Shown here: piece by piece, positions 1,141 to 52,400 of the stretch
Layout: every line of letters starts with the position of its first letter
Numbering within the stretch: position 1 is the first letter of the stretch
From: Candidatus Bathyarchaeia archaeon
GTDB lineage: Archaea > Thermoproteota > Bathyarchaeia > Bathyarchaeales > Bathyarchaeaceae
Length of the DNA stretch: 64,000 nt
Reading direction: 5' to 3'
Assembly: GCA_035283685.1 (NCBI GenBank)
Contig: DATETJ010000009.1
Location: 396,925 to 460,924, forward strand
Made by a program: the position numbers and the translations under genes
Notes under the pieces: model-generated
Databases searched by the model: none
The model's input: the letters and a program-made list of their open reading frames with translations, nothing else
Told to the model about the DNA's origin: nothing

Positions 1141-1177
1141 TCCATAGGTGTGCGGGTGAGTCGGACGTGAACCCGCA
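1141..1177 (-). repeat. tRNA-like element 1 (degenerate tRNA 3' end)
   Basis: Read on the minus strand this resembles a tRNA T-arm plus acceptor end: a GCGGG arm, TTCACGT in place of the usual TTCAAGT loop, then CACCCGCACACC and CCTATGGA. The right-hand CCTATGGA flank is shared with the elements at 4047 and 7559. It is the most decayed of four such elements in the first 8 kb and cannot form a full tRNA. The surrounding 1030-1357 interval otherwise holds only the small frame at 1214-1357. Confidence 0.45.
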
Positions 1178-1213
1178 AAAACTCTGTCATGGTTGGTTGA
1201 GCGATGGATGTTT

Positions 1214-2502: not shown

Positions 2503-2549
2503 TGGTGCCGGGGGGACTTGGACCACCGGGAGCTGGCGATGTCTCCCGC
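2503..2549 (-). repeat. tRNA-like element 3
   Basis: On the minus strand it runs from GCGGGAG through a short hairpin (ACATCGCCAGCTC), a TCCAAGT loop and CCCCCCGGCACCA. It sits about 40 nt beyond the stop codon of the NHL-repeat gene. A 33-nt block (forward 2531-2563) is identical to the corresponding block of the element at 7559, and includes the internal hairpin and a pyrimidine-rich flank. The acceptor-like stem is poorer than in the copies at 4047 and 7559. Confidence 0.5.
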
Positions 2550-2588
2550 AACACCCCTTCTTTTCTTGCTTTTGATGTGTAGAGCATG

Positions 2589-3920: not shown

Positions 3921-4046
3921 TCTTATTAGATTTGCAGTGTCTGTATTCTATACAATGAATCCAGAAAACAATAACGCTCTTAGCAATAACACCCAAAATC
4001 CCTCAACGTCGCCAAGACAAAACCCCGAGGGTGGTTTTTCCATAGG

Positions 4047-4106
4047 TGGTGCGGGGGGTGGGACTTGAACTCACCGAGGAGTGGCGATGTCTCCACTGTC
4101 TCCCGC
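4047..4106 (-). repeat. tRNA-like element 2 (60-nt minihelix)
   Basis: Minus-strand reading: GCGGGAG, a perfect hairpin AGTGG/CCACT, a linker, then GTGAG-TTCAAGT-CCCAC as a near-perfect T-arm, then CCCCCGC-A-CCA. The acceptor-like ends GCGGG and CCCGC pair. The T-arm, acceptor strand and CCA match the true tRNA-Leu at 8615-8702 closely. There is no D-arm or anticodon arm, so it is not a functional tRNA. A T-rich tract (forward 4115-4120) lies on its 5' side. The rest of 3921-4280 holds no gene. Confidence 0.6.
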
Positions 4107-4280
4107 ACTTTCCCTTTTTTCTGTCTTAAGGTTTTGAGTTGATGATGGACGCGGAAAATTTCTCTGTCATGATTGCTTGTTTGACGGGTCGTTCTATCTA
4201 ACCATAATATTTGTTGTTCCACCAAAAAGATTCTAGTTGAGGAGCGACGTTAGAAAAAGGGTGGGGTGATTTGTGGTAAA

Positions 4281-7200
4281 CTACCAGTTTTTGGTTTTGT
4301 ATCTGTTTTCTTCCCAGATGTTGCCTGTGCCTGTCATGTCCCAGTATAGGTCAAACTCTTCGTTGGTTAGAGCCTTGTTTTGCTCAATTTTGTTGTAATT
4401 AGAGTTTATTCCTTCGTCTTGGGCAACTGCTATGCCACACATCCGGTTTTTGGCAGCTACGTTTTTTTCGATGATGTTGCTGGAGGAAGCGAAAAGGTAT
4501 ATCCCATGGTTGTTTTCCTTAGCTTGGTTTTCCTCGATTTTGTTATTGTCTGACCCATAGAGAATGATGCCGTACACGCCGTTGTTTGTTGCTTCATTAT
4601 GTTCGACCTTGTTGTAATTTGAATTGTAGAGGATGATGCCGCCGCGTTGGTTGCGCGTGGCTATATTTTCTTCGAGAGCATTATGCTCCGACCCATCAAC
4701 TACGATGCCCCAGCGGATATTGCCAACCAACGTGTTTGCTTCCACCACATTGTAATCAGATTCCACAAGGGTTATTCCACGATAGTTGCCTTCAACCATG
4801 TTCTCTGTGATCTTGTTATTGAAAGAGTTGTGTAAGACTATGCCGTCTTCGACGTTGAAAGATGCAGTGTTCATTTGCACAATGGTGTCATATGATTCTA
4901 CCAGATGAATGCCACAATAAGAGTTGGAAATTGCCAAGTTGTCTTCTAACTTGTTGTCATAAGAAAACCATATGGAGATTCCTTCAAAATTGTCACTTGC
5001 AATGTTGTCCAGAAATTTATTGTAGTCAGAGTCTGAAACCATGATCCCTACAGTGTTGCTGGTTGCATTGTTAGAGGAAATTTCGTTATTTTCTGAAAAG
5101 TTGCGGATGTCTAAGCCATAACTGTTGTACATCACTCTATTTCCTTTAACTTTGCTGAAACTTGATTCGTCGAGCACTATTCCATTAAAATTGCTTACCG
5201 CTATGTTGCCCTCAATCGTGTTGTGATTTGAGTGGACAACGAGGACGCCGTCCCAAGTATGGCTGTGGGCGATATTCCCAGAGACAGTGTTGTAGTCGGA
5301 ATACCATAAGGAGATGCCACGCTCACCATTTGAAATCAGTTGGTTATCTTGTACGATGTTGTGGTTCGAGGAGTCATGGAGCCTAATACCCTCCCAATTG
5401 TTAAAGAACACAATGTTTCCTCGCAGATGATTTTCAGTTGAGTTGAAAAGCGAGATGCCGTTGTTATTGCTGCTTACTACGTTGTTTGACACCAAGTTGT
5501 GGTCATTGTCTTTCCACAAGACGATGCCCTCCTCTCCATTTCCAATCACCACATTATGTGATACTTCGTTATTATCGCTCGACTCTACCAGTGCGATGCC
5601 CTGCGCATTGTTGCTTGCAGTATTACCAGAGATAATGTTGTATGAAGACTGGGAGAGGACTATACCGACAGCTTCATTGTCGCTTGCCACGTTGTCCAAC
5701 ACTTTATTGTAATTTGATGAAGCAAAGAAGTTTATGCCGGCGAAGTTTGAAGCTGCTATGTTTTGGCTAACTAAATTGTGGTGAGATTCTCCTAACCAGA
5801 TGCCAGCCCAATTATTCGTTACTGTGTTATTTCCTATCTTAGAGTTTTTGGAACGATGGAGGTGTATACCAGCGTAGGCATTTGAGGTTATTATGTTTCC
5901 TTCCACACAATTGTTATCAGATTCCCATAGTGCGATGCCAATATCACCATTTGAAGTTACTATGTTTTCTTGTATTATGTTGTCATTCGAGGAGTCATGG
6001 AGACTAATACCCCACCAACTGTTAAAGGATGCATTGTTTCCCTGGAGATAATTTTCCGATGAGTTGAAAAGCATGATCCCGAAGTTATTGTGGCTCGCTA
6101 CGTTGTCTGACACCATGTTGTACTTGGGAGAAACTACGTTTTTCCACAAGGCGATACCCTCCGCTCCATTTTCAGTTGCCACGTTATTTGACACAATGTT
6201 GTGGTTGCTTGCGTCTCCCAGAGCAATGCCTTGCCAACTGTTGCCAGAAACATTGTTATATGTTATGGCGTTGTTGCTTGAATTTATTAACCATATACCT
6301 GCGTGACTGTTCAACGTTACATTATTGTCGCGGATGATGTTGTTGTTTGAGTGGTAGTGTTCGATGCCGGCCCATTCGTTTAGAGTTAGTATGTTGCCTT
6401 CAATAATATCCCCATTAGAGTAGTAAAGAGACAGACCACCCAACCCGTTTTGAATCGTAAACCTGTTGATCCTCACGTTGTCAGCAGTTATATGAATTAC
6501 GTGATCAGTTGCCCCACCGTCAACAATCGTGGTTTCAGAATCTTCACCCACAAGGGTTAAAGATTTGTACAGAAAGACGTTTTCGTAATATATTCCAGCA
6601 TCAACTTGGATTGTGTGTCCGTCCAAAGTTTCAGGAGCATCTATTGCTTCCTGAATCCATGCATAGTCCAAACCCGTGTCAACATTATGGACCACATGTG
6701 GAGTTGACGTGGAAATGTACAACGAGACATAAGTCTCATAGGGTGTTCTTGTACTGTCGTCCCATACGCCCACAAGTAGGTTTGTCCTTATGACTTGGCC
6801 TGGGGTGAAGGCCCAGTCATAGCCATCGTCTGAGTTAAGTTCTTTCCTAAATTCATACCAGTAGTAGGTTCCATCGTGAGTTGCTGCACCTTCAACGTTG
6901 TTCTCTCCAAGTGGTGACGCACTAACGTCATTGTACCATCTGGTTTCGTCCCAACCGTACAAGTCGAATGTTGCGTTGTCGAATTCGACGAAGCTAAAGT
7001 CACTGTGAGCCCAGAGTAGAGGGGGTTCCCCGATCCAATCCCAGAAATAGTCGATATATCCTCCGTCAAATGGATCGATATCCCCAGCAGGCCATTCCAC
7101 TCTATACAGGATGTAAAGCCATGTGTTGTCATTCTTTATCCAAACCCTGGCTGAAACTGTTCCAGGACCTACGTGCCACTCCAATAAGGTTAGGTCAACG

Positions 7201-7388
7201 GGAATCGTATCCGACCACTCTTCAGCTGTCGTCATTTTGCCATCAAAGGTAACGGCGATACTTAACCAGCCACTTGTAACGTTTACATTTGCTTGGGCTA
7301 ATTGAATGTTAAATGCTAATGTCAACATGCCAACAATGAGCAGTGTCAGCATTGTTCCAGAAACTGCTTTCTTTTCCAGTTTTCTCAC
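4281..7388 (-). CDS. large secreted parallel beta-helix (NosD-like) surface protein
   Basis: A 1035-residue protein. Residues 10-33 form a signal peptide (MLTLLIVGMLTLAFNIQLAQA). Residues 36-235 resemble a CBM9/DOMON-like beta-sandwich (SIAVTFDGKMTTAEEWSD, Trp/Asp-rich strands). From about residue 245 to the end there are some thirty right-handed beta-helix coils of 22-24 residues with the pattern NxxxxNxxxxxxGIxLxxSxxNxIxxN, as in NosD/pectate-lyase-like repeats. There is no C-terminal anchor; it ends ENRYKTKNW. It is probably exported and attached non-covalently, with a glycan- or surface-binding role. A second tRNA-like element lies 171 nt upstream. Protein-level relatedness to the surface protein at 55-58 kb is clear in the helix part. 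Confidence 0.9.
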   Translation of the reverse strand: MRKLEKKAVSGTMLTLLIVGMLTLAFNIQLAQANVNVTSGWLSIAVTFDGKMTTAEEWSDTIPVDLTLLEWHVGPGTVSARVWIKNDNTWLYILYRVEWPAGDIDPFDGGYIDYFWDWIGEPPLLWAHSDFSFVEFDNATFDLYGWDETRWYNDVSASPLGENNVEGAATHDGTYYWYEFRKELNSDDGYDWAFTPGQVIRTNLLVGVWDDSTRTPYETYVSLYISTSTPHVVHNVDTGLDYAWIQEAIDAPETLDGHTIQVDAGIYYENVFLYKSLTLVGEDSETTIVDGGATDHVIHITADNVRINRFTIQNGLGGLSLYYSNGDIIEGNILTLNEWAGIEHYHSNNNIIRDNNVTLNSHAGIWLINSSNNAITYNNVSGNSWQGIALGDASNHNIVSNNVATENGAEGIALWKNVVSPKYNMVSDNVASHNNFGIMLFNSSENYLQGNNASFNSWWGISLHDSSNDNIIQENIVTSNGDIGIALWESDNNCVEGNIITSNAYAGIHLHRSKNSKIGNNTVTNNWAGIWLGESHHNLVSQNIAASNFAGINFFASSNYNKVLDNVASDNEAVGIVLSQSSYNIISGNTASNNAQGIALVESSDNNEVSHNVVIGNGEEGIVLWKDNDHNLVSNNVVSSNNNGISLFNSTENHLRGNIVFFNNWEGIRLHDSSNHNIVQDNQLISNGERGISLWYSDYNTVSGNIAHSHTWDGVLVVHSNHNTIEGNIAVSNFNGIVLDESSFSKVKGNRVMYNSYGLDIRNFSENNEISSNNATSNTVGIMVSDSDYNKFLDNIASDNFEGISIWFSYDNKLEDNLAISNSYCGIHLVESYDTIVQMNTASFNVEDGIVLHNSFNNKITENMVEGNYRGITLVESDYNVVEANTLVGNIRWGIVVDGSEHNALEENIATRNQRGGIILYNSNYNKVEHNEATNNGVYGIILYGSDNNKIEENQAKENNHGIYLFASSSNIIEKNVAAKNRMCGIAVAQDEGINSNYNKIEQNKALTNEEFDLYWDMTGTGNIWEENRYKTKNW

Positions 7389-7558: not shown

Positions 7559-7609
7559 TGGTGCGGGGGATAGGACTTGAACCCTCAGAGAGCTGGCGAT
7601 GTCTCCCGC
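7559..7609 (-). repeat. tRNA-like element 4 (51 nt)
   Basis: Minus strand: GCGGGAG, hairpin ACATCGCCAGCTC, then GAGGG-TTCAAGT-CCTAT as a weakened T-arm, then CCCCCGC-A-CCA. The ends pair as GCGGG/CCCGC. The 3' flank CCTATGGAAAAAC is shared with element 2 and, with one change, with the real tRNA-Leu flank. The 5' side shares a 33-nt identical block with element 3. It sits in the 350-nt gap before the beta-helix gene, which otherwise holds only an A/T-rich promoter-like zone. Confidence 0.6.
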
Positions 7610-7737
7610 AACACCCCTTCTTTTTTTGTCTGCTTAAACACGCTTGCAACGCATGCATAAAGATTAAAACAACAAGGGTTGAATATTAAGAGGACTGGCA
7701 TTGCCTGATTCTCGAATGTCACGCAGGGTTCTCTGCC

Positions 7738-8403: not shown

Positions 8404-8614
8404 CCGTTAACGCTTGCAAAGCGTTGCGAGAATAGTCTGAGAATCAAGTGTGAAGTATTCAAATGCGTATGTAATGTAGAGAAAAAAGGGAAGAAGATTT
8501 TGGTTTCTAGTTGCTTATTGCAGCTAGGATGTCTAGCAACGTTTGAGAACGTGCATCAACATCACCAGACAGCCCAACATCACCCTCACGGACCCTCGCA
8601 TATTTTTCCGTAGG

Positions 8615-8702
8615 TGGTGCGGGGGGTGGGACTTGAACCCACGAAGGCCTTCGCCAGAGGATCTTAAGTCCTCCCCCTTAGACCTGGCTCGGGTACCCCC
8701 GC
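8615..8702 (-). tRNA. tRNA-Leu(UAA) with encoded CCA
   Basis: Complete class II tRNA, 88 nt including the genomically encoded CCA. Acceptor GCGGGGG pairs with CCCCCGC; D-arm ACCCGAGCCAGGTC; anticodon stem GAGGA/TCCTC with loop CTTAAGA (anticodon TAA); long variable arm TGGCGAAGGCCTTC; T-arm GTGGG-TTCAAGT-CCCAC; discriminator A. No intron. Its T-arm and acceptor strand are the parent-like sequence for the tRNA-like elements at 1141, 2503, 4047 and 7559. Confidence 0.97.
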
Positions 8703-8821: not shown

Positions 8822-9140
8822 ACATAGAAGGGGTAGACCACACACATGCGACCCAGACTACTACTTCTGAACACAGCCAGCTCGGTATTATGACTTGTTC
8901 TAAGTGGAAGCTAATAACATCTGAAAAGAAACTCGCCTCCAACATTCAAGAAGCTGTTGGGCAAACCCTTCAGAGTCAACAACAACTCCAAAACAGCACA
9001 GCCATGAAGGGCGTTGATGTCACCGGGAACACTCTGACGACGATGTCCACACAGCTTCAGCCGCTGATGCGTTCCAACAATGGTAGAAGAAGGCTAAAGG
9101 GAAATGACACCTTCTTCTTCTGAAATTTCTCTTCCTGCAG
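8822..9140 (+). repeat. dispersed repeat, copy A
   Basis: One of four related 320-440 bp sequences (others at 23453, 37379 and, inverted, 52062). Ordered blocks: ACATAGAAG..., ACTACTACTTCTGA, CTCGGTATTATGACT..TTCTAAG, CTAATAACATCTGAAAAG, CAACATTCAAGAAG, CAACAACAACTCC, GTTGATGTCACCGGGAAC, ACGACGATGTCCACACAG, CTTCAGCCGC and the closing hairpin GAAGAAGG...CCTTCTTC. Copy A keeps an open frame (8890-9123) but without ribosome-binding site or recognisable domain; its left stem is degraded. It fills most of the 870-nt gap between 8403 and 9275 together with tRNA-Leu. Confidence 0.8.
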
Positions 9141-9274
9141 AACTGCCAACATTTAGCCGTGAGTAAGCATTATATCATTGTTTCTTATTTTACCCCTAGT
9201 CTCTGAAAAACATAACCACGAGCGTTATGAGGAGCCGCCACGGCTTCTCTGAGAGAGTTTAGGAAAGCATTGAA

Positions 9275-23366: not shown

Positions 23367-23452
23367 ATCCTGCTCCGAAAGGGCAATTATGCAAAACACA
23401 AACATAAAACCCTTAACATACACCAAAAAAGAAGAAGCAAACAAACACGTGG

Positions 23453-23793
23453 GTGCAGACTACTCTTGGGCAGAAACAAGCTCGGTATTATTACTGTTTC
23501 TAAGCGTGAGTTAATAACATCTGAAACAGAAACCGGTCCTCACACGCCGTCCTTGACGAAGCCAGGTCCAACCAGTGACGAAGCCCTGACACAGACCAGC
23601 GGGCAAGCAGAACCCAAATCACCATACAAAAACCCAAACACACCCCAAGAAACAACGCGCAGACTCGTTGATGTCACTTAGAACACTCTGACGACGACAT
23701 CCATACAGCTTCAGCCGCACAACACACTCAACATGGTAGAAGAAGGCTAAAGGGAAATGGCGCCTTCTTCTTCTGAAATCTCTTTCCCCGCAC
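23453..23793 (+). repeat. dispersed repeat, copy B (with partial duplicate to 23862)
   Basis: It aligns with copies A, C and D through GCAGACTACT, CTCGGTATTATTACTG, TTCTAAGCG.GAGTTAATAAC, then a copy-specific 120-nt insertion, then GTTGATGTCACTTAGAACAC, ACAGCTTCAGCCGC, and the GAAGAAGG...CCTTCTTC hairpin. It lacks the second stem. Immediately downstream, 23808-23862 repeats the block GATGTCACTAGGAAC...CACACAGCTCTTCCCGC a second time in diverged form, so the right half is partly duplicated in tandem. It occupies the 550-nt gap between acetoacetyl-CoA synthetase and the OB-fold gene. Confidence 0.75.
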
Positions 23794-23920
23794 AACAGCC
23801 ATGCTGGATGATGATGTCACTAGGAACAGCTTGACGATGACGCCCACACAGCTCTTCCCGCGATTTCAGGGACATCGAGATTACTTTATCCTATTCAGAG
23901 GCAATGTCCAGCCGGAGCCT

Positions 23921-37378: not shown

Positions 37379-37821
37379 ACATAGAAGTAGTAGTCAACGT
37401 ACACGCGGCACAGACTACTACTTCTAAACCTGAAGCACCTTGGTATTATTACCATTTCTAAGCGAAAGTTAATAACATCTGAAACAGAAACCACCCTCAC
37501 AACATCACCTTCAACATCCAAGAAGTTGTTGTGGCAAACCCTTCAACGTCAACAACAACTTCAAAACGCTTGATCACTCAACGCCACACAGTCTGCGCTT
37601 GCATGTTCAACTACAACTGTCCAAACCACTGCCCTCAACCACAGCGTCTGAGCGTTGATGTCGCCGGGAACAGTCGTATGACGATGTCCACACAGCTTCA
37701 GCCACACCCACACGTGATGATGAAACAATAGCGCAAGTCAACTTCATCACGCACACAGTCGCAACCACTGGAGAAAAAGACCTTAATGGTCAGTCGCCTT
37801 CTTCTCCTGAAGTGCGCCTCC
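37379..37821 (+). repeat. dispersed repeat, copy C
   Basis: The longest copy. Stem 1 is perfect here: AGAAGTAGTAGTC pairs with GACTACTACTTCT across a 20-nt loop. The core CTTGGTATTATTACC..TTCTAAGCG..AGTTAATAAC follows, then stem 2 (CAAGAAGTTGTTG / CAACAACAACTTC, 10-bp perfect core), then a 90-nt copy-specific insert, GTTGATGTCGCCGGGAAC and ACAGCTTCAGCCAC. The right hairpin region is rearranged, but CGCCTTCTTCTCCTGAAG at its end matches the usual CACCTTCTTCTTCTGAAA. The interval 37273-37960 before metG contains no other feature. Confidence 0.8.
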
Positions 37822-52061: not shown

Positions 52062-52400
52062 CTGCGGGAAAACAAATTTCAAAAGAAGAAGGTGCCATTT
52101 CCCTTTAGCCTTCTTCTACCATGTTGCAGGTGCGTTATGCGACTGAAGCTGTATGGATATCGTCGTCAGAGTGTTCCCGGTGACATCAACGAGCGGAATG
52201 TTACGCGTGGAGGGGCTGTGGCTGTTTTGAAGTTGTTGTTGACTAGCGTAGTGCTTTGTTACAACAACTTCTTGAATGTTGGAGGCGAGTTTCTTTTCAG
52301 ATGTTATTAACTTCCGCTTAGAATCAGTAATAATACCGAGCTCGTTTCTGCTCAGAAGTAGTGGTCTGTGCCTCGTGTTTGTTGACTACTACTTCTATGT
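52062..52400 (-). repeat. dispersed repeat, copy D (inverted)
   Basis: Minus-strand orientation. From right to left: ACATAGAAGTAGTAGTC with GACCACTACTTCTGA (stem 1 with one mismatch), CTCGGTATTATTACTG, TTCTAAGCGGAAGTTAATAAC, CCTCCAACATTCAAGAAG, stem 2 (GAAGTTGTTG / CAACAACTTC, perfect), GTTGATGTCACCGGGAACAC, CAGCTTCAGTCGC and the hairpin GAAGAAGG...CCTTCTTC. It fills nearly the whole 472-nt gap between lpd and hypD. Because it lies in the opposite orientation to A-C, it is an element rather than a tandem duplication. Confidence 0.8.

What the first reader, a model, noticed from the sequence alone, without database searches (positions are those of the whole stretch)
4047..4106. tRNA-Leu-like minihelix elements
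Four minus-strand elements (1141, 2503, 4047, 7559) carry the T-arm, acceptor 3' strand and often CCA of the tRNA-Leu at 8615-8702, three of them (2503, 4047, 7559) joined to a short hairpin and GCGGG 5' arm. Three (1141, 4047, 7559) lie 119-171 nt upstream of genes for membrane or secreted proteins, one behind such a gene. They could be attachment-site scars from integrations at the tRNA gene, tRNA-derived repeats, or a regulatory RNA that mimics a tRNA end.
Basis: partly seen in the sequence, partly recalled or inferred. Interest (0 to 1): 0.7.

Follow-up and report, generated by a model that had tools for sequence, protein, structure and literature searches.

The report
Recombinase scars at archaeal tRNA ends
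The odd half-tRNA pieces are scars left where mobile DNA recombined into tRNA genes of a Bathyarchaeia archaeon; they carry a DNA tag that, in this sequence collection, occurs only in that class and also sits beside a family of integrase genes, so they look like part of an integron-like gene-shuffling system rather than a regulatory RNA.

Summary
Three minus-strand elements (2503, 4047, 7559) join the 3' end of tRNA-Leu (T-arm to past CCA) to a short constant sequence, and a fourth (1141) is a deleted version. The constant part, AAAAAAGGGGAGTTTGCGGGRGAYATCTCCA, is not tRNA. An exact 23-base core of it occurs in 79 stretches of 84,980 species genomes; 77 are Bathyarchaeia (a few records labelled only uncultured archaeon). 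It sits between genes in no fixed orientation to them, and neighbouring copies point the same way (36 of 40). In about a fifth of sites it is joined in fixed register to the T-loop and 3' end of a tRNA (Leu, Pro, Ala, Ser, others), in about a tenth to an antisense tRNA 5' end, and elsewhere to an imperfect dyad in the same register. Identity with the parental tRNA starts at the T-loop, and for tRNA-Ala the likely reciprocal junction exists. The left half of the constant sequence lies about 50-120 bp upstream of a Xer-like tyrosine recombinase in at least 10 of 26 homologues (0.36 expected); the host genome has two. I conclude these are attachment-site junctions of a Bathyarchaeia-specific integrase system with integron-like arrays. 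Cassette mobility is inferred, not shown. The minihelix/regulatory RNA idea is not supported.

The parts
8615..8702 (-). intact tRNA-Leu (TAA), the target gene
   Evidence: ARAGORN, Rfam RF00005 55 bits
7545..7584 (-). tRNA-Leu 3' end (T-loop, acceptor 3' strand, CCA) plus its 3' flank CCTATGGAAAAA; junction starts at GGG|TTCAAG
   Evidence: identity with tRNA-Leu starts 3 nt before the T-loop and runs past CCA
7594..7611 (-). constant module TTGCGGGAGACATCGCCA
   Evidence: 0 mismatches to pattern
7612..7631 (-). A-run / G-run part of the arm (AAAAAAAGAAGGGGTG)
   Evidence: sequence; consensus of 86 distinct sites
4035..4070 (-). tRNA-Leu 3' end plus flank CCTATGGAAAAA
   Evidence: BLAST 95% to 8603-8642
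4082..4108 (-). module, variant with 9-nt insertion (GTGCGGGAGACAGTGGAGACATCGCCA)
   Evidence: similar insertion variants in L224 and L282
4109..4122 (-). A-run / G-run part of the arm
2503..2524 (-). decayed tRNA-Leu 3' end with CCA
2534..2551 (-). constant module TTGCGGGAGACATCGCCA
   Evidence: 0 mismatches
2552..2570 (-). A-run / G-run part of the arm
1141..1184 (-). deleted version: GAGTTTTTGCGGG joined to TTCACGTCC...CCCGCACACCTATGGAA
   Evidence: sequence read; inference that it derives from the same junction
4281..7388 (-). gene between sites 7559 and 4047 (NosD/right-handed beta-helix protein, 1035 aa)
   Evidence: Pfam PF05048, PF13229
2589..3920 (-). gene between sites 4047 and 2503 (NHL-repeat protein, 443 aa)
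   Evidence: Pfam PF01436
1358..1909 (-). gene between sites 2503 and 1141 (PEMT/ICMT-type methyltransferase)
   Evidence: Pfam PF04191
7738..8403 (+). gene between tRNA-Leu and site 7559 (transglutaminase-like)
   Evidence: Pfam PF01841

Best explanation
Each element is a junction (attR-like attachment site) made by a Xer-like tyrosine recombinase of Bathyarchaeia. The constant sequence is the arm of the attachment site that belongs to the mobile DNA. About 33 nt from the module start, in fixed register, lies an imperfect dyad that I take for the crossover core. When the target is a tRNA gene, the T-arm (GTGGG-TTCAAAT-CCCAC) is that dyad, so the junction joins the arm to the tRNA from its T-loop through the CCA and into its 3' flank; some junctions instead use the D-loop on the other strand. 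In the window, serial events at tRNA-Leu(TAA) left three or four such junctions in the same orientation with about one gene between them. Shown: the constant arm, its restriction to Bathyarchaeia in the collection scanned, the register, the T-loop junctions, the likely reciprocal junction at tRNA-Ala, the same-orientation arrays, the arm upstream of recombinase genes, and module-bearing stretches absent from sister genomes. Inferred: that this recombinase makes the junctions, that crossover is in the T-loop, and that the stretches between sites move as cassettes.
For: (1) Genome-wide the module is joined to the 3' ends of different tRNAs. (2) Identity with the parental tRNA begins 3-7 nt before TTCAAAT (in some cases within a G-run) and runs past CCA at 7559, 4047, L053 (Pro), L038 (Ala), L003 (Ser) and G018:1052504 (Leu). 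(3) G000:C10:119060 carries tRNA-Ala nt 1-47, two mismatches, then GGGGTTCAAATCCC and unrelated sequence: the expected partner of L038 (module...GGGGGTTCAAATCCCCCCCAGTCCA). (4) In 109 sites without recognised tRNA sequence a dyad is centred 33.5 nt from the module start (0.39 vs baseline 0.262, SD 0.020; pairs 29-38 and 28-39, z 4.6 and 5.5); T-loop sites centre at 33.0. (5) Adjacent sites share orientation in 36 of 40 pairs. (6) The arm lies within 250 nt upstream of 10 of 26 homologues of one tyrosine recombinase family (0.36 expected); full module-like sites in reverse orientation lie upstream of L433, L435 and L448, the last in this genome. The pattern R..K..HxxR..K..Y is conserved in the homologues aligned. 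(7) In L227 four sites with creatininase, flavin reductase and rubrerythrin genes between them are followed by the recombinase gene. (8) The five-site array of G018 lies in about 6.2 kb where sister genome G015 has about 125 bp; two further cases.
Against: Most sites have no recombinase nearby (6 of 53 within 3 kb, about 2.4 expected by my estimate), and genomes with this recombinase family are not significantly more often module-bearing (7 of 8 vs 18 of 33; p about 0.1 by my calculation). The recombinase-side sites mostly share only the left half of the module (A-run to GCGGG). The right half of the scars is also constant, which a plain attR would not need. Sister genomes are too diverged (about 75-87% identity) to give base-exact empty sites, and the three cases do not agree on which end of a module is the edge of the insertion. 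Genes beside modules are ordinary metabolic genes.
Confidence: 0.8

Rival explanations
1. A structured non-coding RNA or mRNA leader that mimics a tRNA end (minihelix), processed by RNase P/Z or CCA enzyme.
For: T-arm and acceptor 3' strand intact in some copies; CCA present; some copies upstream of genes.
Against: No strand preference against genes; no base conserved upstream of the A-run that could mark a promoter; hairpin energy not better than shuffled in sites without tRNA; acceptor pairing with GCGGG is lacking in many non-Leu copies; no Rfam match even at E 1 other than tRNA and a sub-threshold snoRNA hit elsewhere.
Confidence: 0.04
2. Split or intron-interrupted tRNA genes: the module and its reverse complement next to tRNA 3' and 5' parts would be the pairing leaders of trans-spliced halves.
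For: Module is followed at 12 nt by reverse complements of tRNA 5' ends in some sites and by tRNA 3' ends in others; a poly-T follows the 5' halves on their sense strand; L053 has both parts of tRNA-Pro flanking 1.1 kb.
Against: Halves lack the region between D-loop and T-loop (tRNA-Pro nt 1-22 and T-arm onwards); an intact tRNA-Pro exists 3 kb away; the same leader for all tRNAs would not pair them specifically; most sites have no tRNA.
Confidence: 0.03
3. End sequence of a DNA transposon, MITE or IS200/IS605-like element with a preference for tRNA genes, unrelated to the tyrosine recombinase.
For: Short intergenic repeat, many copies, conserved end and variable flank; one case with the palindrome TGGAGATATCTCCA at both ends (L053).
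Against: No second conserved end found; arrays are overwhelmingly same-orientation; the arm lies upstream of tyrosine recombinases far more often than expected.
Confidence: 0.08
4. Ordinary tRNA attR scars of unrelated proviruses/plasmids, the constant arm being an incidental host sequence.
For: The genome also has tRNA 3' fragments without module (C2:561009, C2:217125).
Against: The same arm next to many different tRNAs and genomes and next to recombinase genes cannot be incidental; no exact match in IMG/VR.
Confidence: 0.05

Closest known systems
Genomic islands and integrative elements in tRNA genes (tyrosine integrases; Islander, PMC4383910; review of archaeal tyrosine recombinases, PMC8371274; titles and abstracts only seen)
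   Same: Tyrosine recombinase, tRNA 3' end as target, displaced tRNA 3' fragment marks the junction, tRNA gene left intact in the window.
   Different: One constant arm is shared by a whole class and is joined to many different tRNAs, to antisense D-loops and to non-tRNA dyads; stretches between sites are often 0.5-3.5 kb with one to a few genes and mostly no integrase.
Integrons and cassette arrays without integrase (CALIN), including archaeal integrons (PMC9668308)
   Same: Same-orientation arrays of sites with single genes between; Xer-like tyrosine recombinase whose 5' end faces a site (L227); most arrays lack an integrase.
   Different: No attC consensus (GTTRRRY in 19 of 166 sites, 36 in shuffles); no integron-integrase NCBIfam model reached; tRNA genes serve as targets. 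'Bathyarch' does not occur in the main text of the archaeal integron paper.
Tycheposons (named in PMC10872708; original paper not read)
   Same: As I recall it, small integrative elements at tRNA genes that leave partial tRNA copies.
   Different: As I recall it, restore whole tRNAs and carry their own recombinase; no class-wide constant arm. From memory, not tested.
Archaeal XerA/dif
   Same: Recombinase is XerA-like (NF040815, 1e-17 to 1e-23, below cut-off; PDB 4a8e and 5hxy hits).
   Different: Many sites per genome rather than a single dif; protein longer (387-450 aa in most) with a conserved K after the HxxR motif where many family members have H or W (comparison from memory).

Membership tests
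tRNA-targeting tyrosine-recombinase integrative elements | Junction within a tRNA gene with target-identical sequence to the gene end | tested here: met
   identity starts at T-loop and passes CCA in six junctions compared with their parents
tRNA-targeting tyrosine-recombinase integrative elements | Integrase gene linked to the attachment site | tested here: met
   arm upstream of 10 of 26 homologues, 0.36 expected; at other scars mostly no integrase nearby
tRNA-targeting tyrosine-recombinase integrative elements | Reciprocal attL/attR pair flanking one element | tested here: inconclusive
   tRNA-Ala pair (C10:119060 and C11:247737) lies on two contigs; tRNA-Pro parts flank 1.1 kb
tRNA-targeting tyrosine-recombinase integrative elements | Empty site in a relative | tested here: inconclusive
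   stretch absent in sister genomes in three cases, but not base-exact
Integron | Integron integrase (IntI) family membership | tested here: not met
   no integron-specific NCBIfam model among hits; XerA_Arch model (titled site-specific tyrosine recombinase/integron integrase) only below cut-off
Integron | attC sites with RYYYAAC/GTTRRRY ends | tested here: not met
   absent from consensus; GTTRRRY in 19/166 sites vs 36/166 shuffled
Integron | Array of same-orientation sites with single genes next to the integrase 5' end | tested here: met
   L227; 36/40 neighbouring pairs same orientation
Integron | Cassettes excise and integrate | not testable with these tools
   needs reads or experiments
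Split tRNA genes | Complementary halves covering the whole tRNA and no intact copy | tested here: not met
   middle of tRNA missing, intact copies present for Leu, Pro and Ala
Rfam RNA families | Match to a described RNA family | tested here: not met

The most novel reading that the evidence does not exclude
Bathyarchaeia possess an integron-like gene-cassette system of their own: a Xer-like recombinase with an attachment site next to its 5' end, arrays of single-gene cassettes tagged by a class-wide constant arm, and a core that tolerates different sequences as long as they form a dyad at fixed distance, so that T-loops or D-loops of many tRNA genes serve as entry points.
Probability: 0.4. 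Interest if true: 0.82.

Novelty: new variant of a known kind. Interest (0 to 1): 0.64.

Why it matters
Bathyarchaeia are abundant and mostly uncultured, and how they take up accessory genes is largely unknown. A class-wide attachment-site tag lets one list insertion junctions and cassette arrays in any Bathyarchaeia genome by sequence search, and names a recombinase to test. If the arrays are mobile, this is an archaeal gene-capture system analogous to but distinct from integrons, using universally conserved tRNA loops as landing sites.

Tried and rejected
Regulatory RNA/minihelix: no strand bias, conserved upstream base or general hairpin. Split tRNAs: middle of tRNA missing, intact copies exist. 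Transcription terminator: as many sites face gene ends from one side as the other. Hairpin next to every module: noticed by eye, failed as an energy test; the narrower dyad test at fixed register passed, but only a minority of sites have long stems. MITE with a second conserved end: none found. Virus origin: no exact match in IMG/VR and no relative of the recombinase found there. Genome-level correlation of recombinase and module presence: not significant. attC membership: failed. Literature searches on archaeal integrons, Bathyarchaeia mobile elements, tRNA introns and tRNA attachment sites turned up no description of this sequence among the titles and abstracts listed and the two papers searched by term.

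Full report
CHECK OF THE OBSERVATION. The window holds one tRNA, Leu(TAA), at 8615-8702 minus. The elements at 2503, 4047 and 7559 are as described; 1141 is a deleted relative that keeps GAGTTTTTGCGGG directly in front of a T-loop-like stretch. A BLAST of the 4047 element against its own 2.28 Mb genome gives eight places at E up to 1e-3, some of them intact tRNAs. The window is contig C9:396925-460924 of that genome.

THE CONSERVED PART IS NOT tRNA. Other copies carry the same sequence TTGCGGGAGACATCGCCA, or close variants, in front of different tRNA ends: a Ser-like 3' end (L003), tRNA-Ala (L038), or no tRNA at all. In 41 relatives it occurs in 25 genomes, up to 14 times per genome, with reversed-pattern controls at 0 or 1. 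The pattern GGRNKTTGCGGGRGAYATCDCCA has exact matches in 79 stretches among 84,980 species genomes. Of these, 77 are titled Candidatus Bathyarchaeota, Bathyarchaeia or Bathyarchaeum, or 'uncultured archaeon' (CALJDG and CALKGV records); the other two are in bacterial records, share nearly the same sequence, lack the A-run and look like chance. IMG/VR has none. The consensus from 86 distinct sites is A5-7, G-run, NNTTTGCGGGRGAYATCTCCA.

WHERE IT SITS. Sites are mostly between genes, without orientation preference relative to the genes. Neighbouring sites in one locus share orientation in 36 of 40 pairs. In the single-contig G018 chromosome 18 sites score 10 or more (1 in the reversed control), with arrays at 18-28 kb and 849-854 kb. 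Genes beside sites are ordinary: aldehyde ferredoxin oxidoreductase, TatD, nitroreductase, GNAT, methyltransferase and others.

REGISTER AND JUNCTIONS. After the module, 11-12 nt on, about a fifth of the sites (35 of 166) enter a T-loop and run to the tRNA 3' end; 18 of 162 contain antisense tRNA 5' sequence by my pattern, which also catches a few decayed T-arms. The tRNAs differ. Aligning junctions with their parental tRNAs shows identity beginning 3-7 nt before TTCAAAT, within G-runs in some, and continuing past CCA: Leu at 7559 and 4047 (into CCTAYGGAAAAA), Pro in L053, Ala in L038, Ser in L003, Leu(GAG) at G018:1052504. The tRNA-Ala case has a likely partner: C10:119060 matches the intact tRNA-Ala (C10:120017) for nt 1-47, has two mismatches, shares GGGGTTCAAATCCC and then diverges, while L038 has the module followed by GGGGGTTCAAATCCCCCCCAGTCCA. 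The two lie on different contigs, both near contig ends. In L053 the first 22 nt of tRNA-Pro and its T-arm end flank 1.1 kb.

A DYAD AT THE SAME PLACE. If the T-arm is a crossover core, sites without tRNA should also have a dyad there. In 109 such sites, complementarity of symmetric positions peaks 33.5 nt after the module start (0.39; baseline 0.262, SD 0.020), where the T-loop centre of tRNA-type sites lies (33.0). The strongest pairs are 29-38 and 28-39 (z 4.6 and 5.5); stems of 6 or more occur in 18 sites against about 8 expected. The test was prompted by eye inspection of some of the same sites, so the choice of register was not blind. A general folding-energy test was negative.

THE RECOMBINASE. 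In L227 four sites in one orientation (one of them weak) alternate with creatininase, flavin reductase and rubrerythrin genes and end at a tyrosine recombinase gene (387 aa, PF00589 1.7e-9), the last site about 80 nt before its start. This genome has two relatives (C4:3775-4935, 43% identity; C3:41097-42107, 40%). Among 26 homologous places from Bathyarchaeia, 10 have the arm within 250 nt upstream of the match, against 0.36 expected from the pattern's frequency in G018; the homologues are not independent of one another. In nine of these ten the A-run is distal and the core side faces the recombinase; the tenth, L448 of this genome, has the reverse orientation. L433 and L435 have further module-like sites with T-arms in reverse orientation. 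The nine share the arm as far as GCGGG but differ from the scars after it. The pattern R..K..HxxR..K..Y is conserved in the 22 sequences aligned, the tyrosine in the 19 that reach it. The nearest solved structures are XerC-like/XerA recombinases. At genome level, presence of this family and of modules is not significantly associated (7 of 8 versus 18 of 33), and other PF00589 proteins are numerous.

INSERTIONS. The five-site array of G018 (L303) lies in about 6.2 kb for which sister genome G015 has about 125 bp between the same flanks. A G015 module starts 15-30 nt after synteny with G018 ends, and synteny resumes 1.7 kb later; a G008 module lies within 2 kb missing in G018. In G010 two loci share a 619-bp unit (93.5%) that begins at the A-run of the module and ends at the stop codon of a nitroreductase gene. 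These show that module-bearing stretches are gained, lost or duplicated, but the diverged sequences do not give exact boundaries and do not agree on which side of the module is the edge.

CONCLUSION. The elements are attachment-site junctions of a recombinase system specific to Bathyarchaeia in the collection scanned. In the window they record serial events at tRNA-Leu(TAA). Integron-like gene capture is a plausible reading, but integron membership fails on attC consensus and integrase family, and mobility of single cassettes remains inference.

Noticed in passing
window 8822-9150, 23429-23801, 37379-37706, 52062-52400; also L231, L232, L233, L264, L268, L271, L314: An unrelated intergenic repeat of about 330 bp, many copies per genome, several lying within a few hundred bases of tRNAs or tRNA fragments; it contains stretches (GTTGATGTCACCGGGAACACTCTGACGACGATGTCC) that look like box C/D motifs to me.
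   Followed up: partly
G000:C2:561009-561052, G000:C2:217125-217179, G000:C3:17059-17116: tRNA 3' halves without the module, starting near the anticodon arm: probably scars of other integrases.
   Followed up: no
L224:8881-9499 and L225:8000-8618 (genome G010): 93.5% identical 619-bp unit: module + tRNA T-arm + nitroreductase gene, ending at the stop codon.
   Followed up: partly
L244, L248, L249 (genomes G008, G015) and L220:6900-6995 (G018): Another intergenic repeat (GTTTAACATAGATCGTTTACGTTTTAACATT...CCAAAAATCGGGG), often next to ATGCATGC palindromes.
   Followed up: no
L224:11069 and 12764, L282, window 4082-4108: Module variants with an inserted stretch of about 10 nt (TTGCGGGAGA-AGTCGGGAGA-TATCTCCA), as if the inner half had been duplicated.
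   Followed up: no
L437, L439, L056, L121: A second kind of right half after the arm, such as CGGGAGAACACCCGA, in some recombinase-side sites and in this genome (C11:131972); may be the site of a related recombinase.
   Followed up: no
G018 chromosome: ARAGORN finds only 21 tRNAs (34 with introns allowed) in a 1.5 Mb genome given as 92% complete; many Bathyarchaeia tRNAs seem to have introns.
   Followed up: no
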